Positions 50 through 25,308 of a stretch of 35,437 nucleotides of DNA are shown in pieces. The stretch comes from a virus. How positions within the stretch are numbered: the stretch's first letter is position 1; each line of letters opens with the position of its first letter. The stretch spans positions 1-35,437 of IMG/VR virus record IMGVR_UViG_3300022723_000019. One strand, 5' to 3'. The position numbers and the translations under genes are program-made. Under the pieces are notes generated by a model, which was not told where the DNA came from, made no database searches, and worked only from the letters and a program-made list of their open reading frames with translations.

Positions 50-703
50 ATGAACAATCCCGGCAACGGTCTCCAGGTCACGTATCGAAAGACCTCAGAC
101 CTGATCGAGTACGAGAACAACGCTCGGACTCACTCGGACGAACAGATCGCCCAGATCGCGAACTCGATCAAGCAGTTCGGCTTCGTCAATCCAATTCTGA
201 TCGATCCCGGCAAGACCATAATCGCCGGTCACGGCAGGTGGGCCGCAGCGAATACCCTCGGCCTCGACGAAGTGCCTTGCATCACCGTGGGGTATCTCAA
301 CGACGAGCAGCGCAAGGCGTTGGTGATTGCCGACAACAAGCTGGCGCTGAATGCGAGTTGGGATTGGGACGTGCTGAAGTTCGAGTTGAACGCGCTCGCC
401 GCCGCAGAGTTCGACCTGGACACGGTCGGCTTTTCCGACGTGGAACTGAAGGCGTTCTTCGGGACCACTGCCGATGATCCCCGAAAAGAGTGGAAGGGGA
501 TGCCCGAATACGTGCAGGAAAACGCCGAGGCGTTCCGCTCGATCATCGTTCACTTTCACGATCAGAAGGGGGTCGATGAGTTCATCGAGAAAACAGGAAT
601 GAAGATCAGGCCATCGACGAAATACAGTTGGTATCCCGACATCGAGATCGACAGCGTCAGGGACTTGGGCTGGTCAACCGAAGACGAGGAGGGCGCGGAG
701 TGA
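50..703 (+). CDS. ParB/Srx-fold N-terminal domain protein
   Basis: The N-terminal half (about residues 10-100) has the ParB/sulfiredoxin-like pattern: NARTHSDEQI, a SIKQFGFVNPIL stretch, then IIAGHGRWAAA. In phages this domain is often fused to a DNA methyltransferase, but here no methyltransferase motif follows. Instead there is a C-terminal region with IVHFHD and TKYSWYP (about residues 155-205) that I recognise from other phage ParB-like proteins but cannot assign a function. The start is the first ATG in frame; the frame is open to base 1, so a longer N-terminus outside the window cannot be excluded. It overlaps the next gene by 4 bases. Role is inferred: DNA binding or nicking, possibly coupled to DNA modification or packaging. 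Confidence 0.8.
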   Translation: MNNPGNGLQVTYRKTSDLIEYENNARTHSDEQIAQIANSIKQFGFVNPILIDPGKTIIAGHGRWAAANTLGLDEVPCITVGYLNDEQRKALVIADNKLALNASWDWDVLKFELNALAAAEFDLDTVGFSDVELKAFFGTTADDPRKEWKGMPEYVQENAEAFRSIIVHFHDQKGVDEFIEKTGMKIRPSTKYSWYPDIEIDSVRDLGWSTEDEEGAE

Positions 704-1644
704 AGAAGATCATCGTGACAGGCGGGACCGGATTCATCGGGCGGTACGTGGTCGAGGAACTACACCGGAACGGGTATCACGTGATTCAGTTCGACAGGCA
801 CAAGCGTGACCTGGAGAGTATCGAGACGAATGGCCCGGTCGATCTATTCGTGGGCGACGTGATGAACAACCGGGACGTGACGGAAGCGTTCGCGCACGGT
901 CATGCGTTCGTGCATCTTGCGGCGGTACTCGGGACGCAGGAAACCATCGCGAACCCGATACCCGCAGCCGAGTCGAACCTGCTCGGTGGGCTCAACGTCT
1001 TGCAGGCGGCAGCGCAATACGAGGTGCCGGGTGTCTATATCGGCGTCGGCAATCACTGGATGAACAACACGTATTCGATCACGAAGACGATGATCGAGCG
1101 GTTCGTCGACATGTACAACAACGACCGGGGAACTTGCGTGAACATCGTACGGGCGATGAACGCCTACGGGCCACGGCAGATTCCCGCCGAGCCGTATGGT
1201 CCGGCGAAGGTACGCAAGATCACCCCGGCTTTCGCGTGTCGCGCACTGTCCGGTATCCCCGTCGAGGTATACGGCGACGGTCTCCAGGTCTCCGATATGA
1301 TTCACGTTCGCGACGTGGCGACTGCACTCGTGCTCGCGATGGAATGCGCCATGCTTGGCAAGCGATTGGAGAAGGTGGTCGAGATCGGGCCGGTCGATAA
1401 TTCGAGCGTGAACGAGGTCGCGAAACTGATCATCGAGATCGCCGGGAGCGAAGTACCGATCAAGCACCTGCCAATGCGTCCCGGGGAGATACCGGGATCG
1501 ACGGTCTGTGCGGATACCGACACGCTCGCGCAGATCGATATGGACCCCGCGTGCCTGATACCGCTCGAAGACGGGATGACGGAGACGGTCGAATACTTCC
1601 GAAACTATCTCCAGGAGACCGGATACTCGAACCATGAGCAGTAA
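700..1644 (+). CDS. NAD-dependent epimerase/dehydratase (extended SDR)
   Basis: This is an extended short-chain dehydrogenase of 314 residues. The Rossmann glycine motif GGTGFIG is at residues 8-14, the region HLAAVLG follows near residue 72, and the catalytic YSITK (Y125, K129) is intact. Enzymes of this family convert nucleotide-sugars by 4-epimerisation or dehydration; the exact substrate cannot be read from sequence. The GTG start at 700 overlaps the upstream stop (GTGA) and follows a GAGGAGGG ribosome-binding site, so I prefer it to in-frame ATGs further upstream, which would lie inside the ParB-like gene. It lies between a ParB-like gene and a glycosyltransferase, so it probably supplies the sugar donor for that transferase (inference). 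Confidence 0.85.
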   Translation: MKKIIVTGGTGFIGRYVVEELHRNGYHVIQFDRHKRDLESIETNGPVDLFVGDVMNNRDVTEAFAHGHAFVHLAAVLGTQETIANPIPAAESNLLGGLNVLQAAAQYEVPGVYIGVGNHWMNNTYSITKTMIERFVDMYNNDRGTCVNIVRAMNAYGPRQIPAEPYGPAKVRKITPAFACRALSGIPVEVYGDGLQVSDMIHVRDVATALVLAMECAMLGKRLEKVVEIGPVDNSSVNEVAKLIIEIAGSEVPIKHLPMRPGEIPGSTVCADTDTLAQIDMDPACLIPLEDGMTETVEYFRNYLQETGYSNHEQ

Positions 1645-2554
1645 GAGCCCGCCACAATTTCCGATCTACATTCCGTCGAAGGGACGCAGCGAGTCTCGCC
1701 TGACAATGAAGTGGTTCGAGAAGGTCGGGTGTCCGTACAACGTGGTGGTCGAGGAAGAAGATCACGATGACTATGTCGCGTCGCTCGACCCTGATCTGGC
1801 TCGCGTGATCATTCTGGATCCGAAGTATCAGGACGAGTACGACACGTGCGATCCGGGCAGTCGCGAGGCCGGTAAGCTGGTCGGCGCGGGAGCGGCAAGG
1901 AACTTCGCGTGGGAGCACTCGATGTCGGAGGGTCACGATTGGCATTGGGTGATAGACGACAATATCCGAGGGTTCTACCGCCTGAATCGCAACCGCAAGA
2001 TTCCGTTCCGTGACGCGGTCGTCTTCCGAATGATGGAGGACTTCGTGCTGCGATACACGAACGTCGCAATGGCGGGTCCGAACTACTATATGTTCGCGCC
2101 TCGCAAGCAGAAGTTTCCACCGTTCGCGACGAATACCCGCATCTATTCCTGCAACCTGATTCGCAACGACATTCCGTTCCGATGGCGAGGACGGCTCAAC
2201 GAGGACACGATCCTGAGTCTCGACATCTTGAAGGGCGGTTGGGCGACGATTCAGTTCTATACGTTCCTCGCGAAGAAGATGGTGACGCAGGTCGTCAAGG
2301 GCGGCTACACCGAGCAGTATCTCGACGAGGGAACGAAGGCGAAGACGCAGATACTCGTGAACGCTCATCCAGACGTGACCGAACTGGTGTGGAAGTTCTC
2401 GCGGTGGCACCATGAAGTGGACTACAGTCAGTTTCAGTTCACGAAGTTGGTCAAGCGCGATGACCTGGAGATACGGCCGGGCAACGACAGTTACGGCATG
2501 AGGTTAAGGGACTATGGGAAGACGCGGTCCGAAGCCGACTCCGCGCAATCTTAG
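1634..2554 (+). CDS. GT-A glycosyltransferase, TAGT (TET/JBP-associated)-like
   Basis: The 306-residue protein starts with a GT-A-like strand and loop, IYIPSKGR (residues 11-18). It has a metal/nucleotide-binding type motif WVIDDNI (105-111), in the place of a DxD motif, and an acidic RLNEDT segment (187-192) that would supply the catalytic acid. This combination resembles the phage TET/JBP-associated glycosyltransferase (TAGT) family, whose proposed role is adding sugar to hydroxymethylated bases in DNA. No TET/JBP oxygenase gene is visible in this window, so the acceptor base is open. It overlaps the epimerase by 11 bases and the small terminase by 41 bases, so the cassette is co-transcribed with packaging genes. 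The family call is from memory of motifs; a different GT-A family is the main alternative. Confidence 0.65.
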   Translation: MSSKSPPQFPIYIPSKGRSESRLTMKWFEKVGCPYNVVVEEEDHDDYVASLDPDLARVIILDPKYQDEYDTCDPGSREAGKLVGAGAARNFAWEHSMSEGHDWHWVIDDNIRGFYRLNRNRKIPFRDAVVFRMMEDFVLRYTNVAMAGPNYYMFAPRKQKFPPFATNTRIYSCNLIRNDIPFRWRGRLNEDTILSLDILKGGWATIQFYTFLAKKMVTQVVKGGYTEQYLDEGTKAKTQILVNAHPDVTELVWKFSRWHHEVDYSQFQFTKLVKRDDLEIRPGNDSYGMRLRDYGKTRSEADSAQS

Positions 2555-2933
2555 ACTCGTCAAGGGAATAGATCGCAAGGATCGAATCAATACCGACGAG
2601 CCAGAGGTTGAGGTAACGATACCCGACCCACCGGATCATCTGACCGAGGAGGAGGCCGACAAGTTTCGCGAGATGGGCGCGAAGCTGGCACGCATGCGCG
2701 TGATGTCGGATGCAGATGTCGATGCGCTGGCTCTTTACTGCGTGGCGTTCCTGCGGATGGTCGAGGCCGATAAACGAATCAGGGAAACGGGGATGATGAT
2801 CAAGAGCCCGAAGGGATACCCGATTCAGAATCCGTTCCTCGCGATCAGCAATCGAGCTCGTAAGGACTGCCAATCGATTCTAGCGGAGTTCGGGATGACG
2901 CCGAGTAGCCGAACGAGGGTGAAGGCGACGTGA
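2514..2933 (+). CDS. terS: terminase small subunit, P27-like
   Basis: The 139-residue protein has the P27-family layout: a basic Gly/Pro-rich start (MGRRGPKPTPRNLRLVKG), an acidic linker with proline pairs (PDPPDHLTEEE), then helices and a C-terminal SNRARKDCQSILAEFGMTPS segment, which is typical of the family's end. The small terminase recognises the packaging start site on phage DNA and loads the large subunit. The ATG at 2514 lies inside the end of the glycosyltransferase gene (41-base overlap), and the stop overlaps the large terminase start. Position directly before the large subunit supports the call. Confidence 0.9.
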   Translation: MGRRGPKPTPRNLRLVKGIDRKDRINTDEPEVEVTIPDPPDHLTEEEADKFREMGAKLARMRVMSDADVDALALYCVAFLRMVEADKRIRETGMMIKSPKGYPIQNPFLAISNRARKDCQSILAEFGMTPSSRTRVKAT

Positions 2934-4618
2934 GCCTCAAGACTGAAGCGCCACACGTTTACAAGGCGATTCAGTACGCAGATCGAGTCGTGGCCGGGAA
3001 GGAAGTCGCCGGTCTCCTGGAGATTAAAGCCTGCGAGAGATTCCTGAACGACCTCGACCGGGCAAGCGCGCCGTTCTATCTCGACTCCGCTGCCGCCGAG
3101 AAACCGTGCCGATACATCGAGCGACTTCGTCACATCAAGGGCGAGTGGGCGAAGCGGCGGGAGACCATCAAACTGGAACCGTGGCAGTGCTTCAACATCG
3201 TCAACGTGTTCGGGTGGATACTCGTCGAGGAAGCCGTGCGCAGGTTTCGGATGGCGTACACGGAAGTCGCCCGTAAGAACGCGAAGTCAACGCTCGCGGC
3301 AGGCGTCGGACTTTACATGGTGGACGAGGACGACGAGGCGGGTGCGGAGGTATACAGCGCGGCCACTACTCGAAATCAGGCCAAGATCGTATTCGGTATC
3401 GCTCAGGCGATGGCCCAACGGTGTCCCGAACTACCCTTAGAGGTGCGCGCTCACAACATTCATAACCTCGACAGGGCATCGAAGTTCGAGGCGCTTCACG
3501 CGCAGGGCGAAACTCTCGACGGTCATAACATTCACTGCGCGATCAACGACGAGCTCCACGCGTGGAAGAACCGAAGCGTGTACGACGTTATCGAGACCGC
3601 TACTGGTTCACGGACGCAGCCGCTGATCTACAACATCACGACGGCCGGAAGCGACACGAGCGGCGTGTGCTACGACACGCGCAGGTACATCGAGCGGATA
3701 CTGCTTGGCAAGACCGAGGACGACTCGGTGTTCGGAATCATCTACACGCTCGACAAGGAAGACGAGTGGAGCGACCGGAAGGTGTGGCGCAAGGCGAACC
3801 CGAACCTGAACGTGTCCGTGTACCCGATGGACTTGGAATCACTGGCGAAGAAGGCATCGGAGATCTCCAGTCAGCAGAACGCTTTTCTCACTAAACGAAT
3901 GAACGTGTGGGTCAACGCCGCCGAGGCGTGGATGAACATGCGGCAGTGGGAGGGGTGTTACGACGCTGGCCTGGAGATACAAGACTTCGAGCTCGAAGAT
4001 ACGTGGGCCGGAATCGACCTCGCTTCCAAGATCGACCTGAGTAGTCAGGCGCAGATATTCGCGAAGGAGATCGACGGAAAGGATCACCTGTACTGCTTCA
4101 TGCGTCACTGGTTGCCGGAAGCCGCGGTCGAGGAAGACCCGAACGGACTTTACGACGGTTGGGTGCGCGCCGGTCACATCAGAACCACTCCGGGAAACGT
4201 CATCGACGTGGACAAGATCGAGGACGACACCATCGAGGAAGTGGCAGCGCCGTTCAATCTGGTCTCGCTGGCGGTCGATCCGGGCCACAACTCCACGCAG
4301 TACGGGGTCCACATGGCGCAAGAATTAGGACCGATTGTTATCGACGTGCGTCCTACGGTGCTAAACTTCAGCGAGGCGATGAAGTGGCTCGAAGCCTACG
4401 TCAAGGACGGACGCTTTCACTTCTGCTGCCCCGTACTGACTTGGATGGTCTCGAACGTCGAGGTGAAGCGAGACCACAAGGACAATATCTATCCCCGGAA
4501 AAGTGCGCCGATGCGCAAGATCGACGGAGTGATCGCACTGCTGATGGCCATAAACCGCTACCGACTGGCGCTGGAAGGTGGCTCGATCTACAACGAGCGG
4601 GGAGTCGTTTCCGTATGA
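2930..4618 (+). CDS. terL: terminase large subunit
   Basis: This is the ATP-driven DNA packaging motor with a nuclease domain, 562 residues, the usual size. The Walker A-like ARKNAKST is at residues 114-121 and the Walker B-like CAINDELHAW at 203-212, where the acidic pair follows a hydrophobic strand. Aspartates in GIDLASKIDL (about 362) and LAVDPGHNS (about 445) fit the RNase H-like nuclease domain that cuts concatemers. The GTG start overlaps the small-subunit stop (GTGA). It belongs to the HK97/P27-associated terminase group rather than the lambda gpA type. Translationally coupled to the portal gene downstream (ATGA). Confidence 0.93.
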   Translation: MSLKTEAPHVYKAIQYADRVVAGKEVAGLLEIKACERFLNDLDRASAPFYLDSAAAEKPCRYIERLRHIKGEWAKRRETIKLEPWQCFNIVNVFGWILVEEAVRRFRMAYTEVARKNAKSTLAAGVGLYMVDEDDEAGAEVYSAATTRNQAKIVFGIAQAMAQRCPELPLEVRAHNIHNLDRASKFEALHAQGETLDGHNIHCAINDELHAWKNRSVYDVIETATGSRTQPLIYNITTAGSDTSGVCYDTRRYIERILLGKTEDDSVFGIIYTLDKEDEWSDRKVWRKANPNLNVSVYPMDLESLAKKASEISSQQNAFLTKRMNVWVNAAEAWMNMRQWEGCYDAGLEIQDFELEDTWAGIDLASKIDLSSQAQIFAKEIDGKDHLYCFMRHWLPEAAVEEDPNGLYDGWVRAGHIRTTPGNVIDVDKIEDDTIEEVAAPFNLVSLAVDPGHNSTQYGVHMAQELGPIVIDVRPTVLNFSEAMKWLEAYVKDGRFHFCCPVLTWMVSNVEVKRDHKDNIYPRKSAPMRKIDGVIALLMAINRYRLALEGGSIYNERGVVSV

Positions 4619-8010: not shown

Positions 8011-8676
8011 ATGATCGAGCAGCGATACACTCACGGCGCGGCAGTGTTAATCGCAGGCGGCCCCTCCCTGACTCGGGAGCAGGTCGAAGCGTGCAGACCG
8101 CTACACGACGAAGGTCAGTTAGCTGCCTTCGGGTGCAACGACGCATATCGCATCTGCGATTATCTCGACGTTCTCTACGCTGCCGACTACCTCTGGATTC
8201 ACCATCACTTCGACGAAGTCTCCAGGTCTTCGATCTCGAAGCTGTACACGTCGAGGGAAGATCGCAACGACCAGTTCCCGCAGTGGACGCAGGTCACGGT
8301 CGATTCGACGGGCTACGGTTTCAGCGAAGATCGCACTATGCTATGGAGCGGCCATCACGGCGGCTATCAACTCATTCAACTGGCGTACCTGAGCGGCATC
8401 ACGACGATGCTTCTGATCGGGTACGACGGAACGAGCGGAGGAAATCACTGGTTCGGGCCACACCCGACACCGGGGATGAATCTGCAAGGGAACTACGAGG
8501 GCAAGTGGAACGAATGCCACGACGTACTCGCGCAGCGCGCGCGATCCCTCGGAGTGACCATTATCAACTGCTCGCCGGGATCGCGGATCGGTGCTTATCC
8601 GCGTCTTGATTTAGCGAGCGCACTGGAGGCCATCAATGACACACCCGGAAAAGTGGAAGTACGAAAAGTGCTATGA
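8011..8676 (+). CDS. Rossmann-like protein, DUF115/sialyltransferase-like
   Basis: The protein begins with a strand then AGGPSLT (residues 15-21), followed by GCNDAYRICDYLDVLYAADYLW (41-62) and a C-terminal half with LLIGYDGTSGGNHWFG. The GGPSL start and the Cys-Asn block resemble the MptE-like/DUF115 and CstII-type sialyltransferase folds, which phages carry as putative glycosyltransferases (the so-called norphogenetic proteins). Substrate is unknown. The ATG at 8011 has no visible Shine-Dalgarno; I found no better start. It overlaps the methyltransferase by 41 bases, so the three genes 8011-10053 form one cassette placed between capsid and connector genes, where it could decorate virion proteins or a glycan. 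Confidence 0.6.
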   Translation: MIEQRYTHGAAVLIAGGPSLTREQVEACRPLHDEGQLAAFGCNDAYRICDYLDVLYAADYLWIHHHFDEVSRSSISKLYTSREDRNDQFPQWTQVTVDSTGYGFSEDRTMLWSGHHGGYQLIQLAYLSGITTMLLIGYDGTSGGNHWFGPHPTPGMNLQGNYEGKWNECHDVLAQRARSLGVTIINCSPGSRIGAYPRLDLASALEAINDTPGKVEVRKVL

Positions 8677-9253
8677 CCTGGAGACCTATCGCATGGGACC
8701 GGCGCGGCTCGCCTACGCCCTGAACGACATCGGTCACTTCAAGGCGGAGTTTCCCATCGATACGGAAGTACCAGAAGATGAAAGCCCGACATTAGCGGCA
8801 ACGTATCTCGACGTTGGCTGCGGACGCGGCGAAACTCTCATCGAGGCACGCAAGCGCGGCCTCATAGCGTGGGGTACCGAACTGGTCGATGCGCTTATCG
8901 CTACCGACGACAACATCATTTACGGCGAACTGGAAGGGCTGCCGTTCGATGATCACACGTTCGATTACGTGACCTGCTACGACGTTCTCGAACACCTGAT
9001 TCCCGGCCACGAACAGGTGGCACTGGATCAACTCGGACGGGTATGCCGGAAGCAGCTGATCATCAGCACGAACAATCGCCCGTCGCACCTGCCGGACGGA
9101 ACCGATCTTCACATCAACAAGCGCGATTGCTCGGAGTGGGCGCAGGACATTCACAACCGCTGGCACGGTCACGCTCGCATCTTCTTCAAGAACGAGGGAC
9201 ACCTCGGCAACGACTGGCATTGGAGGATCGTCTTCGACGATGATCTTGCGTGA
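8636..9253 (+). CDS. class I SAM-dependent methyltransferase
   Basis: Motif I, LDVGCGRGE, is at residues 58-66; an acidic residue at the end of strand 2 (E82) follows; FDDHTFDYVTCYDVLEHL (104-121) is the usual motif of small-molecule methyltransferases, in the UbiE/methyltransferase-11 style. There is no DPPY/NPPF motif, so DNA adenine or cytosine N4 methylation is unlikely. The target is probably a sugar or other small group, in line with its two glycosyltransferase-like neighbours (inference). It overlaps both neighbours. Confidence 0.75.
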   Translation: MTHPEKWKYEKCYDLETYRMGPARLAYALNDIGHFKAEFPIDTEVPEDESPTLAATYLDVGCGRGETLIEARKRGLIAWGTELVDALIATDDNIIYGELEGLPFDDHTFDYVTCYDVLEHLIPGHEQVALDQLGRVCRKQLIISTNNRPSHLPDGTDLHINKRDCSEWAQDIHNRWHGHARIFFKNEGHLGNDWHWRIVFDDDLA

Positions 9254-10053
9254 ACGCATATCTCTACTATCGCCCGAACCAGCAGCATCAACTCGATGCG
9301 ATGTTTCAACTCTCGAAGGGATTCATGCGGCACGGCATCACGCCGAACCTCTACCCGGATTGGAGCAACTATCAGTGCGGGGACTTCGTCGTCTGTTGGG
9401 GCGACAAGGTGCCGGCACACATCGACCGGCCTCGACTGATACTTGAGGCCGGCTACATCAACGGGCGGTCGGGCCACTACGTGGAGGATCGCCTGCTGTT
9501 CGTTTCAGCCGGGTGGAATGGGCTGCATGGCCGCGCCGATCCCCTACGGTCTGACCGCCCACCAGATCGCTGGAACTCGCTCGGCATCGAACTCAAGCCA
9601 TGGAAACATGACGGCGCTTACGTCGAGACGGCACTGATCTGCGACCAGCATCCCGGAGACCAGCAGGCGGGACCGCTGAAGTGGTGGGAGCCGATTGCGG
9701 ACGGGCTCATCAGGTCGGGCGTATCGAACGTGAGGTATCGACCGCACCCGCTGTTCACACCCGACCTGCCGCCGCTGAATGAATCGTTGCAAGAAGCCGA
9801 CCTGTGCGTGACCTGGAGTAGCACGTGCGCAGTCGAAGCGGTCATCGCAGGCGTGCCGACGATCACTCGCAGTCAGGGTTCCGTGGCATGGGATATCACG
9901 AGTCACAGTCTGGATACTCCGCTTTATGTTGGGCCGCGGGAGCAGTGGGCGTACAATCTTGCATATCGCCAGTTTACGTCGGACGAACTGAAGGACGGAA
10001 CCGCATGGGAGGTGCTTCAAGATGGGCTTACGACGAACGAGCGAGCCAACTAA
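9250..10053 (+). CDS. GT-B-like glycosyltransferase
   Basis: This 267-residue protein ends with features of GT-B enzymes: NVRYRPHPLF (about residues 160-169) and TWSSTCAVEAVIAGVPTI (about 188-205). The latter resembles the donor-site loop of capsular polysaccharide, KDO and glycerophosphate transferases. The N-terminal half (MNAYLYYRPNQQHQLD, FVVCWGDKVP) matches nothing I know precisely. The GTG start overlaps the upstream stop (GTGA). The end overlaps the connector gene by 32 bases. Likely function is transfer of a sugar or related group as the last step of the cassette; the acceptor is unknown. Confidence 0.6.
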   Translation: MNAYLYYRPNQQHQLDAMFQLSKGFMRHGITPNLYPDWSNYQCGDFVVCWGDKVPAHIDRPRLILEAGYINGRSGHYVEDRLLFVSAGWNGLHGRADPLRSDRPPDRWNSLGIELKPWKHDGAYVETALICDQHPGDQQAGPLKWWEPIADGLIRSGVSNVRYRPHPLFTPDLPPLNESLQEADLCVTWSSTCAVEAVIAGVPTITRSQGSVAWDITSHSLDTPLYVGPREQWAYNLAYRQFTSDELKDGTAWEVLQDGLTTNERAN

Positions 10054-22313: not shown

Positions 22314-22641
22314 AGGCGCAGGCATAGCGATATGGGTAGCGGTCCTCGCCGCGCTGGCGTTCTATGCCGCCACGCGAGCCGCGTCCGAAAAGCGTAGCCG
22401 CGACAAGTGGATGGGCCAAGCGAAGGAGCACTCCGAGGCGCATCTTATTGAATCGATACACGAAGCCGAACACGCTCTGGACAGGGCGCACGTACATCGC
22501 AAACGAGCTCAGGCGGCGGCAACGAAAACCGAAAAGCGTCTCGACGCGATAGCGAGGAAGGACAATGAAATGGCCGACATTGTTAGTCGTTGGAATGCTG
22601 GTCGGTTGCGCGACGAACACGAGTCCCAATCCGTGGGATGA
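22297..22641 (+). CDS. inner-membrane spanin (Rz-like)
   Basis: This 114-residue protein has one N-terminal transmembrane helix (residues 6-25, KGAGIAIWVAVLAALAFYAA) and a long charged helix (26-110) with heptads, the i-spanin layout. It overlaps the next, lipoprotein gene by 77 bases in a different frame, as Rz/Rz1 pairs often do. In the family, the coiled coil reaches through the periplasm and joins the outer-membrane spanin to fuse membranes at lysis. Confidence 0.7.
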   Translation: MWDRIKGAGIAIWVAVLAALAFYAATRAASEKRSRDKWMGQAKEHSEAHLIESIHEAEHALDRAHVHRKRAQAAATKTEKRLDAIARKDNEMADIVSRWNAGRLRDEHESQSVG

Positions 22642-22987
22642 TCTCCAGGTCTCTGCGGATCCAGCGCAACGAGCCGTCACGCTTCCTGAATGGCCGGCTC
22701 CGGTGTCGTTTACGAGCGACACGGTTACGTTCGACCTCGATGGTGCTAAGAGTCTGGAACGCTTTCAGATCGTAGCAGAGGGGAACACCGACATTGCCGA
22801 AGCGAACGCAGACGAGATCGACGCACTCAACCGAGCAGCAGCAGCCCTCATTGAAGCTGGTCAGCGACAGCGTGCACTCACGGAACTCCAGCGCGAAATC
22901 CTCGAGGACGAACGACGACGACACTTCATCGAGAAGGTCGGATACTGGTTCGGATTCGCGGTCATCATCGCGGCGGCTTCGCTATAG
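22565..22987 (+). CDS. outer-membrane spanin lipoprotein with C-terminal membrane span (u-spanin-like)
   Basis: Residues 1-15 (MKWPTLLVVGMLVGC) form a lipoprotein signal with lipobox LVGC, so Cys15 would be lipidated and sent to the outer membrane. The middle has a beta-like part (PVSFTSDTVTFDLDG) and a helix (residues 85-125). The C-terminus is hydrophobic to the last residue (about 126-140, YWFGFAVIIAAASL). Lipobox at the front plus a terminal transmembrane segment is the layout of unimolecular spanins such as T1 gp11, yet an Rz-like gene overlaps it. AGGAAGGA precedes ATG 22565. Confidence 0.65.
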   Translation: MKWPTLLVVGMLVGCATNTSPNPWDDLQVSADPAQRAVTLPEWPAPVSFTSDTVTFDLDGAKSLERFQIVAEGNTDIAEANADEIDALNRAAAALIEAGQRQRALTELQREILEDERRRHFIEKVGYWFGFAVIIAAASL

Positions 22988-23186: not shown

Positions 23187-23822
23187 TCAGTCAAGCGAAT
23201 TGTAGCGGGTCTTCCTGTCCTCGACTAGTCTTTTCACCTCCCGGTATAGTTCGAGGAATGCTGGCAGTAACGTGTTGTCGATGTACGCCTGATCTCGTTC
23301 GATGCGCTCGCGGAATCCCTTCTCAATTTCGTGATCATCCGAGCGCCAGTAATTGACGTAGTCGCACCACTGTCTGCCGGTCACGAATAGCTGCGTCTGC
23401 ACCTGCGCGATGACCGTGTTGTTCGCCCGAAGCGCGGCGTGCTGCTTGAACGTCTTGAGCGACTTGCGATACTTGATCTCCAGGAGACCGTCGTCGCCGA
23501 TCAGGCCGTCAGGACTGCAACCGATATACGAGTAGTCGTCGTGCACAATGAAGCCGGTCTGATCGACGTCCGTGTCGAACTTGAAGCTGTACCAGCCTCG
23601 CGCCCACGACTCGTAATAGCGACCGTCCGTGAACCACGGCGGCGGTTCTTCCTCGTCGAAGTTAGGCACTCCATCGATGTCGTCCGCGAGTTCTTCCACG
23701 TACCGTCGATACCCCTTCGTGTGCTTCGCCATCAGCGCAACCTGCGCTCGGGACGCGGAGATCACCCCGCGCTTCGCGGCAAGCCATTCCTGAGTACCCT
23801 GCTCCTTACAGAGCGTCTTCAT
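23187..23822 (-). CDS. YqaJ-like viral recombinase/exonuclease
   Basis: At 211 residues, it has the PD-(D/E)xK layout of phage YqaJ/lambda-exonuclease proteins: GTQEWLAAKRGVISAS near the start (the usual EWL..R.G.IGAS motif), then GCSPDGLIGDDGLLEIKYRK with the catalytic Asp, Glu and Lys. The C-terminal AQVQTQLFVTGRQWCDYVNY is the usual YqaJ end. It should digest one DNA strand to leave single strands for annealing. It is the last gene of the leftward operon, 113 bases before its terminator. A single-strand annealing candidate is encoded upstream in the same operon. Confidence 0.88.
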   Translation of the reverse strand: MKTLCKEQGTQEWLAAKRGVISASRAQVALMAKHTKGYRRYVEELADDIDGVPNFDEEEPPPWFTDGRYYESWARGWYSFKFDTDVDQTGFIVHDDYSYIGCSPDGLIGDDGLLEIKYRKSLKTFKQHAALRANNTVIAQVQTQLFVTGRQWCDYVNYWRSDDHEIEKGFRERIERDQAYIDNTLLPAFLELYREVKRLVEDRKTRYNSLD

Positions 23823-24174
23823 TGGCTTGCCTCCCTATGTCGTCGCACCCGCAATCGGGGCAGTAGTCCGTATCTTCCGGCGGTTCGCCCCTGCTACCGG
23901 CGAACGTGCGAACGGTGTTTATCTCCGACTCAGGACCGCGCCAGCCGCAGTGATTGCACGCGAAACACGCAGTCGTAGGATCGGGCAAGTGACCGTCCCT
24001 GCGCAGTAGAAGGTACGCCGCCGTCAACAGGTCCTGCGGCGAGCGGCGCCGCAGCGTGCCGGGATACGAATAGCGTTCATTCGATTCGCGCACGACCACG
24101 ACCAGCTCGCCGAAGTCCATGCCGCAGTCCGGCAAGTAGAGTTCGACCTGGAGAGTGTCATCCGAGGCGATCAT
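23806..24174 (-). CDS. zinc-ribbon protein, function unknown
   Basis: The protein has 122 residues from ATG 24174 (ATGA overlap with the upstream gene); a longer frame to 24249 is only upstream-gene sequence. The C-terminal half has two pairs of cysteines: CFACNHCGW and DYCPDCGCDD, a zinc-ribbon layout. The N-terminal half is beta-like (LQVELYLPDCG, ELVVVVRESNE). No family recognised. It overlaps the exonuclease gene by 17 bases. Confidence 0.7.
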   Translation of the reverse strand: MIASDDTLQVELYLPDCGMDFGELVVVVRESNERYSYPGTLRRRSPQDLLTAAYLLLRRDGHLPDPTTACFACNHCGWRGPESEINTVRTFAGSRGEPPEDTDYCPDCGCDDIGRQANEDAL

Positions 24175-24482
24175 GCACCCATCTCCCCGTCGTGTTCCCA
24201 TTGCGTTTCTCCACGGACCCACGCGGTTACGTTCTCGTGCGAGCCCCATATCCCCGAGCGCCGACTGGGCACGTGGTTGTAAAGGAACCTCACGTAGTCG
24301 CGCATCATGCGAGCGTTGGTATCGTCCGCATAAGAGAAGGCACCGATCAGGTCGTTAGCAAGAAGATTCTTTAGGAAGTCGCCGGTCGGTCGCCGGGTCT
24401 CGAAGAACGCTACGATGGATTCACCGAGCGGAAGTTCCTGCGCTCGGAGATGCGCTTCGGCGGTAAGTTTACACCCTTTCAT
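24171..24482 (-). CDS. hypothetical phage protein (103 residues)
   Basis: Start ATG 24482 follows GAGGAGAG; the longer open frame upstream is out of phase with the real neighbour. MKGCKLTAEAHLRAQELP, then ESIVAFFETRRPTGDFLKNLLANDLIGAFSYAD, is a helical, neutral sequence with a Trp-rich end. It resembles uncharacterised phage proteins that carry NDL.GAFS.AD, but no function can be given. Coupled to both neighbours by ATGA overlaps. Confidence 0.7.
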   Translation of the reverse strand: MKGCKLTAEAHLRAQELPLGESIVAFFETRRPTGDFLKNLLANDLIGAFSYADDTNARMMRDYVRFLYNHVPSRRSGIWGSHENVTAWVRGETQWEHDGEMGA

Positions 24483-24826
24483 AGCTCTCTCCTCACTGAA
24501 ATGATCCGAACCCCGAACGTCTTGTCGAACGACGCCTTGAGGGTGCAGTTCCGCATCGACGCGGCCTTCGCCGCCTGCTCGACGGTCATGCTCGGCTTGA
24601 TCCACGACGGGTTGACGGTCTCGCGCTGATAGTCCCTTCCCTTCTGAGCGAGGCGAGCGAACACGATGTTTCTCGCGTCGTCCGCATTGCCAGCTTCGAA
24701 CGGTCCGGTGGACTGATCCACGAACGGAGACTCGTTGGCCTCCTCGATGTCGCGCTTGTCGAAGTATCGCTTCGTGTGAATCGTGCCGTTCGTGTGGCGG
24801 TATCCCCACCATTGAATTGCGCTCAT
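24479..24826 (-). CDS. hypothetical phage protein (115 residues)
   Basis: Start ATG 24826 follows GAGGGGA, and overlaps the RadC-like stop. MSAIQWWGYRHTNGTIHTKRYFDKRDIEEANESPFV and GPFEAGNADDARNIVFARL form a pattern seen in many uncharacterised phage proteins. C-terminal FGVRIISVRREL is basic. I do not know the function. Confidence 0.7.
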   Translation of the reverse strand: MSAIQWWGYRHTNGTIHTKRYFDKRDIEEANESPFVDQSTGPFEAGNADDARNIVFARLAQKGRDYQRETVNPSWIKPSMTVEQAAKAASMRNCTLKASFDKTFGVRIISVRREL

Positions 24827-25308
24827 AGCATTCCCCTCGACGCGAGCGACGTACACTTCTCGCGAGTAACGCTCAGGTGATCGAGCGTGCGAATGTCCAC
24901 CATTTCCAGCGCGGCCTTAATGCGCCTCGTGATTCGCTCGTCGGCCTGACTCGGTTCGGCCACCCCGGACGGGTGGTTGTGACACAGGATGACCGCAGCC
25001 GCGTTGAAGCGCAGCGCGTTCTTCACGACCTCCCTCGGATAGACGGACGTGCCGTCGATGGTGCCGTTGAACTCGACGCGGAACGTGATCACACGATGCC
25101 GGTTGTCGAGGTAGACGATGCAGAAACGCTCCGATAGTTCGTCGCGTAGCCGCTCCTGCAGGAACGTCTCGGTATCTCCAGGAGATCGAATGACGGTCCC
25201 TTCGAGGTCGAATAGCTGCGACCGATACTTCGCCGCCAGTTGAAGCACGGTTTCGGAATCGGCAACGGCGTATCGACCGTTCGGTTTTTTCACGTACAGT
25301 TCTTTCAT
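24823..25308 (-). CDS. RadC-like JAB/MPN domain protein
   Basis: The 161-residue protein carries a complete JAMM metal site: His110-Asn-His112-Pro-Ser-Gly, then Ser120 and Asp123 (HxH x7 S x2 D). The strand EFNGTIDGTSVYPREVVKNAL and end RTLDHLSVTREKCTSLA match RadC. It lacks the helix-hairpin-helix part of full-length RadC, as do the short plasmid and phage versions. Its biochemical role is unsettled; metal-dependent peptidase or nuclease activity are both proposed for the family. Confidence 0.88.
   Translation of the reverse strand: MKELYVKKPNGRYAVADSETVLQLAAKYRSQLFDLEGTVIRSPGDTETFLQERLRDELSERFCIVYLDNRHRVITFRVEFNGTIDGTSVYPREVVKNALRFNAAAVILCHNHPSGVAEPSQADERITRRIKAALEMVDIRTLDHLSVTREKCTSLASRGML

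What the first reader, a model, noticed from the sequence alone, without database searches (positions are those of the whole stretch)
50..2554. ParB-like protein, sugar epimerase and TAGT-like glycosyltransferase next to the terminase: a candidate DNA sugar-modification cassette
The glycosyltransferase shows IPSKGR, WVIDDNI and RLNED features like the TET/JBP-associated glycosyltransferases proposed to glycosylate oxidised bases in phage DNA. The epimerase could make its sugar donor, and the ParB-like domain could give DNA targeting. The three genes overlap each other and the small terminase, so they are expressed together with packaging. No TET/JBP gene is visible here; it may lie outside the window, or the acceptor base may differ from known systems.
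Basis: partly seen in the sequence, partly recalled or inferred. Interest (0 to 1): 0.8.

Follow-up and report, generated by a model that had tools for sequence, protein, structure and literature searches.

The report
Phage DNA sugar-tagging cassette, unknown target base
Next to its DNA-packaging genes this virus of bacteria carries a sugar-transferring enzyme and its near-obligate small partner domain, probably to decorate its own DNA and hide it from host defences; related viruses lack the known enzymes searched for that prepare a DNA base for a sugar, so what the sugar is attached to is an open and testable question.

Summary
Window 50-2554 encodes, in overlapping order before the terminase, a ParB-domain protein, an SDR nucleotide-sugar epimerase and a TAGT glycosyltransferase (Pfam PF20691, E=7e-38). 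MPEF was found in 54 of 61 viral and 32 of 37 bacterial-genome loci fetched by TAGT alone (most exceptions are contigs cut at TAGT); TAGT was found in 117 of 120 loci fetched by a 10-residue MPEF motif alone. MPEF occurs free, fused to TAGT, or, as here, behind ParB_N. The same ParB_N heads phage DNA methyltransferases and lies upstream of TET in 18 of 18 Nigel-type TET loci, placing the cassette among DNA-base-modification modules. The 'TET elsewhere or hydroxymethyl pathway' idea gets no support: Tet_JBP 0/50, C5-methyltransferase 3/50, thymidylate-synthase family 3/50 and all ordinary. Most likely it is a DNA glycosylation system built on MPEF+TAGT with ParB_N as DNA tether, acceptor base unknown; confidence about 0.65. 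New variant of a known kind.

The parts
50..466 (+). ParB_N-type domain (ParB/CTPase fold, no HTH domain seen); N-terminal module shared with phage ParB-DNA methyltransferases and with the ParB protein upstream of phage TET
   Evidence: PF02195 E=1.2e-9; phrog_498 'DNA methyltransferase' E=3e-50 over aa 8-146; PADLOC MTase_II N-terminus E=1.6e-38; Foldseek 7bm8 ParB E=8e-9
470..703 (+). MPEF domain (name coined here): ~75-aa unannotated near-obligate partner of TAGT, here the C-terminal part of the ParB protein
   Evidence: alignments; linked to TAGT in loci fetched independently from either side; no Pfam, PHROG, NCBIfam or PADLOC family above cut-off on stand-alone members
700..1644 (+). NAD-dependent nucleotide-sugar epimerase/dehydratase (SDR, GalE/RmlB-like); optional donor-sugar gene
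   Evidence: PF01370 E=1.5e-38; phrog_540 nucleotide-sugar epimerase E=3e-57; UDP-glucose 4-epimerase 4zrm E=1.5e-29; YxxxK present (YSITK), the usual catalytic Ser not obvious (read from the sequence)
1634..2554 (+). TAGT glycosyltransferase, GT-A fold, DDN and NED motifs intact
   Evidence: PF20691 E=7.3e-38; phrog_842 E=4.7e-45; invariant residues; fold of a relative GT-A
2514..2933 (+). Terminase small subunit (context, overlaps TAGT)
   Evidence: PF05119 E=1.8e-25
2930..4618 (+). Terminase large subunit (context)
   Evidence: PF20441 and PF03354

Best explanation
A phage DNA-glycosylation module. TAGT is a GT-A glycosyltransferase (DDN motif, so probably metal-dependent) that moves a sugar from a nucleotide-sugar onto a nucleobase of the phage DNA. 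It works together with the small MPEF domain, which binds TAGT or presents the DNA. In this phage the MPEF domain is carried on a ParB_N-type module, the same kind that heads phage DNA methyltransferases and accompanies phage TET, and this module tethers the complex to DNA. The epimerase widens the choice of donor sugar and is optional. Shown: families, intact motifs, overlapping genes, near-absolute MPEF-TAGT linkage, repeated MPEF-TAGT fusion, ParB_N shared with other DNA-modifying enzymes, absence of the known acceptor-making families searched in relatives. Inferred: DNA as acceptor, tethering by ParB_N, role of MPEF, anti-restriction purpose. Unknown: which base, which sugar, whether all sites or specific sites.
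For: TAGT E=7e-38. A homologue in Aeromonas phage Aeh1 (46.5% identical) is very probably the Aeh1 'glucosyl transferase, presumably modifies DNA, unknown base' listed after Iyer et al. 2013 in PMC8056088 (that paper's ORF number differs from the RefSeq tag, so the identity is not proven). The characterised family member T6 TAGT glycosylates glucosyl-hmC in DNA (PMC13216743, PMC13390438). MPEF-TAGT linkage: 54/61, 117/120, 32/37 in three separately fetched sets; 100 of 105 non-redundant TAGTs have MPEF on the locus, 78 adjacent and 13 fused; the fusion label needs at least 5 changes on supported branches of the tree. ParB_N part homologous to 502 phage records, many annotated DNA methylase, and directly upstream of TET in all 18 Nigel-type TET loci. 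Terminase on the locus in 24/58 ParB-type loci; some relatives lie next to helicase/primase, SbcC-like or N6/N4 methylase genes.
Against: No biochemical data; the acceptor is not demonstrated. Relatives lack the recognised enzymes that would make a hydroxylated base, so a DNA acceptor requires an unknown chemistry or an unrecognised acceptor-making enzyme. Nearest solved folds include protein O-glycosyltransferases (COLGALT1, GalNAc-T), though at ~10% identity and generic GT-A level. ParB_N has altered CTPase motifs (GHGR for GxRR, ADN for ENxQR; read from the sequence, motif definitions from general knowledge), so NTP-driven sliding is uncertain.
Confidence: 0.65

Rival explanations
1. A variant within the DNA reading: the base is first hydroxylated or hydroxymethylated by an enzyme not recognised here (divergent dioxygenase, radical SAM enzyme, or a host enzyme), and TAGT then glycosylates it. 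This overlaps the best explanation, which leaves the acceptor open.
For: Radical SAM fused to TAGT (L021, L022, L062) or between ParB-MPEF and TAGT (L075) in a few relatives; three relatives carry a C5-methyltransferase; the characterised DNA glycosyltransferases (T4, T6, RB69-type) use a hydroxylated base made earlier.
Against: No acceptor-making gene recurs next to MPEF-TAGT; Tet_JBP 0/50 and no hydroxymethylase in 50 records.
Confidence: 0.35
2. TAGT+MPEF glycosylates a protein (for example a virion or host protein) or another non-DNA target.
For: GT-A fold shared with protein O-glycosyltransferases; terminase-proximal position in this phage; other sugar-like genes near the capsid gene (8011-10053).
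Against: ParB_N link to DNA methyltransferases and TET; the position differs between phages (terminase, replication genes, T4-like genomes) with no constant protein-coding neighbour other than MPEF; the T6 family member acts on DNA.
Confidence: 0.2
3. TAGT extends an existing sugar on a base, as in T6, rather than adding the first sugar.
For: The only characterised family member does this; tandem or double TAGTs occur (L009, L042, L048, L057, L191).
Against: T6 TAGT is only remotely related (PF20691 E=5e-11; not seen by profiles of this subfamily). No thymidylate-synthase-family hydroxymethylase in the relatives searched. T4-type alpha/beta-GT families were not searched here.
Confidence: 0.1

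Closest known systems
TAGT family, Pfam PF20691 (TET-associated glycosyltransferase; T6 beta-glucosyl-HMC-alpha-glucosyltransferase)
   Same: Family HMM match (131 bits), GT-A fold, DDN and NED motifs
   Different: Not TET-associated; the T6 enzyme is remote and needs glucosyl-hmC; here TAGT comes with a near-obligate MPEF domain and no hmC pathway was found in relatives
Aeromonas phage Aeh1 / phiAS5 glucosyl transferase (prediction of Iyer 2013 as cited in PMC8056088)
   Same: 46-48% identical TAGT; in phiAS5 it carries the MPEF domain fused at its N-terminus
   Different: No ParB_N; MPEF fused rather than on a separate ParB protein; no epimerase between
Phage ParB-DNA methyltransferases (phrog_498; Bacillus cereus ParB-methylase)
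   Same: Homologous ParB_N module (E=3e-50); at least one example near a terminase
   Different: The effector is a glycosyltransferase with MPEF, not a methyltransferase domain
Mycobacteriophage Nigel-type ParB-TET pair (gp1-gp2)
   Same: ParB_N protein overlapping the DNA-modifying gene, close to the terminase
   Different: TET oxygenase instead of TAGT; no TAGT or MPEF on those loci

Membership tests
TAGT (PF20691) | Match above the curated family cut-off over the full model | tested here: met
   131 bits vs 27.5, model 1-205/205
TAGT (PF20691) | GT-A fold with acidic metal-binding-type motif | tested here: met
   DDN and NED invariant or nearly so; GT-A folds top the Foldseek list for a fused relative
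TET/JBP-linked TAGT system | TET/JBP oxygenase in the same genome | tested here: not met
   PF12851 0/50 records and Nigel-TET protein query no match in the window or relatives, with Nigel as positive control; this record may be incomplete
T6-type second-sugar TAGT | 5hmC-making enzyme in the genome | tested here: not met
   No thymidylate-synthase-family protein in the window, and only ordinary thymidylate synthases in relatives
T6-type second-sugar TAGT | First-sugar DNA glucosyltransferase (PF11440 or PF09198) | not tested
   these families were not searched directly
ParB-DNA methyltransferase | Methyltransferase domain following ParB_N | tested here: not met
   C-terminal part is the MPEF domain; no methyltransferase family on the protein in Pfam; the PADLOC MTase_II hit covers only the ParB part
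ParB partition CTPase | ParB_N fold | tested here: met
   PF02195; Foldseek to ParB, Noc, KorB
ParB partition CTPase | CTP-binding motifs and HTH DNA-binding domain | tested here: inconclusive
   motifs read GHGR and ADN instead of GxRR and ENxQR, and no complete HTH domain is apparent before the MPEF domain (sequence); CTP binding itself not testable
DNA glycosyltransferase (function) | Sugar transfer onto DNA | not testable with these tools
   needs LC-MS or an in-vitro assay

The most novel reading that the evidence does not exclude
MPEF+TAGT is a self-sufficient DNA glycosylation system that puts a sugar directly on an ordinary, unhydroxylated base, with the MPEF domain as base-presenting cofactor and ParB_N as a general DNA tether shared by phage methyltransferases, TET and glycosyltransferases.
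Probability: 0.25. Interest if true: 0.85.

Novelty: new variant of a known kind. Interest (0 to 1): 0.62.

Why it matters
TAGTs without the classical glucosylation pathway are an acknowledged puzzle (288 of 753 phage genomes counted in PMC13216743 have a TAGT without alpha- or beta-GT). The MPEF domain gives this group a defining mark and a testable partner, and copies in genomes of cultured strains (Pantoea stewartii, Chryseobacterium gambrini DSM 18014, C. daeguense DSM 19388, Rhodovulum euryhalinum DSM 4868, Marivivens donghaensis) and in isolated Aeromonas phages make the unknown base directly measurable. The shared ParB_N suggests a common way for phage DNA-modifying enzymes to be brought to DNA.

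Tried and rejected
Tet_JBP, C5-methyltransferase and thymidylate-synthase families searched as acceptor makers: absent, rare, or ordinary. MPEF in PDB by sequence: nothing significant. A literature link between ParB and DNA glycosyltransferases: none seen in the held library; Iyer 2013 and Burke 2021 are not held. E. coli genomes and plasmids: no relatives of the Pantoea-type locus. Two MPEF alignments were too variable for a collection scan, so a DNA pattern was used instead. An alignment mixing stand-alone MPEF with fused proteins was misaligned and dropped. PADLOC MTase_II on the ParB protein rejected as an N-terminal-only match. Restriction-resistance data for Aeromonas, Tenacibaculum or Vibrio phages with this TAGT: title/abstract lists were searched; of those papers two were opened at the relevant passages and gave no such data, the rest were not opened.

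Full report
Observation. Window 50-2554 holds three overlapping genes in front of the terminase: a ParB-domain protein (50-703), an SDR nucleotide-sugar epimerase (700-1644) and a glycosyltransferase (1634-2554), with TerS 2514-2933 and TerL 2930-4618 following. Pfam names the transferase TAGT (PF20691, E=7.3e-38), the epimerase PF01370 (E=1.5e-38) and the first gene ParB_N (PF02195, E=1.2e-9). The window is a whole 35.4-kb virus record and may be a fragment.

The missed part. A scan of viral contigs with the TAGT gave 61 relatives. Profile searches of their ORFs showed that the last ~75 residues of the window's ParB protein recur without ParB: as free 76-98 aa proteins just upstream of TAGT, or fused to the TAGT N-terminus. 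In a 20-sequence alignment W, M, P, F and P are invariant, in a pattern W..MPEF...V.F...T.KTK.IW[YF]P. Stand-alone members have no Pfam, PHROG, NCBIfam or PADLOC family above cut-off and no solved relative by sequence. I call it the MPEF domain.

Linkage test from both sides. The motif came from TAGT-linked members, so the sample may lean to them. In 117 of the 120 loci TAGT is present, usually as the next gene; of the three without it, L130 and L181 end within about 120 bp of the domain gene and L178 is a 1.3-kb contig. From the other side, 54 of 61 viral loci and 32 of 37 bacterial-genome loci fetched by TAGT alone carry MPEF; most exceptions are contigs that begin at or inside TAGT. L043 is a real exception by this profile. 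Among 105 non-redundant TAGTs, 100 have MPEF on the locus, 78 adjacent and 13 fused. On a maximum-likelihood tree the fused state needs at least five changes forced by supported branches, and ParB-MPEF at least six (bootstrap not settled). Repeated fusion argues that the two parts work together. ParB_N is optional: 58 of 105. It is the form more often beside a terminase (24 of 58, against 4 of 29 for free MPEF and 0 of 13 for fused, five TerL queries only, so counts are lower bounds).

ParB_N as a module of DNA-modifying enzymes. The window's ParB part matches the N-terminus of phage DNA methyltransferases (phrog_498, E=3e-50; PADLOC MTase_II N-terminus), and 502 phage records encode a relative, many annotated as DNA methylases (in P8625 a methylase and in RcBaka a free ParB protein lie near the terminase). 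A profile of the ParB_N part also finds a ParB_N protein directly upstream of the TET gene in all 18 Nigel-type TET loci; in Nigel the two genes overlap and lie near the terminase. The predicted fold (mean pLDDT 85.5) is that of ParB/Noc/KorB (7bm8, E=8e-9); the CTPase motifs are changed and no complete HTH domain is apparent.

Transferase. The motif residues are intact. The predicted model of a fused relative (pTM 0.74, TAGT part mostly above 90) is GT-A by Foldseek (heparosan synthase E=3e-5; COLGALT1; GalNAc-T). The MPEF part of that model is low-confidence and no interface claim is made.

Acceptor. Tet_JBP: 0 of 50 records; Nigel TET rings as positive control for both the family and the protein query while no relative does. 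C5-methyltransferase 3 of 50. Thymidylate-synthase family 3 of 50, all three ordinary thymidylate synthases by NCBIfam, so no hydroxymethylase was seen. Many records are fragments, but the phiAS5 (225 kb) and Ah1 (221 kb) records are genome-size. Sugar or transfer genes recur beside the pair in a minority of loci: SDR in 7 of 95, radical SAM, class-I methyltransferases including one fused to TAGT in L113. None is constant, so the core is MPEF+TAGT.

Known versus new. T6 TAGT adds a second glucose to glucosyl-hmC (PMC13390438, PMC13216743) but is remote from this subfamily. An Aeh1 glucosyl transferase, very probably this relative, is listed after Iyer et al. 2013 as DNA-modifying with unknown base (PMC8056088), and TAGTs without alpha- or beta-GT are flagged as potential novel transferases (PMC13216743). 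So the enzyme family and the idea of a DNA-modifying TAGT are known. The MPEF domain, its linkage to TAGT, and a ParB_N shared by methyltransferase, TET and TAGT were not found in the papers I could read. Iyer 2013 and Burke 2021 could not be read, so priority is uncertain.

Verdict. Observation confirmed; interpretation partly supported. Best reading: a DNA glycosylation cassette, confidence about 0.65, acceptor base unknown.

Noticed in passing
window 8011-10053: Three genes between the presumed major capsid gene and head-tail genes: sialyltransferase-like (phrog_4603 E=2e-26), SAM methyltransferase (PF08241) and a possible glycosyltransferase (DUF6716, weak). In L070/L111-type loci (same TAGT as the Pantoea stewartii locus L186) a trio that looks similar by eye sits directly upstream of ParB-MPEF-TAGT.
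   Followed up: partly
L021 9392-10741, L062 9392-10741, L075 665-1708: Radical SAM domain fused to TAGT, or encoded between ParB-MPEF and TAGT: a candidate acceptor-making or sugar-modifying step in some phages.
   Followed up: partly
L087 4757-5557, L073 3130-3933, L113 1690-3339, L004 9995-11728: A class-I methyltransferase between MPEF and TAGT, or fused to the TAGT C-terminus (FkbM type in L004).
   Followed up: partly
L009, L042, L048, L057, L191, L214: Two TAGT domains in tandem or in one protein, suggesting a second sugar may be added.
   Followed up: no
L184 1-789 and 776-1741 (Mycobacterium phage Nigel): ParB_N protein overlapping the TET gene; the ParB-TET pair recurs in all 18 related loci.
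   Followed up: yes
L223 (T6 MH550421, record 22359-22970): The T6 TAGT match in this record contains one in-frame TAG.
   Followed up: no
window 23187-25308 (- strand): YqaJ-like recombinase and RadC genes.
   Followed up: no
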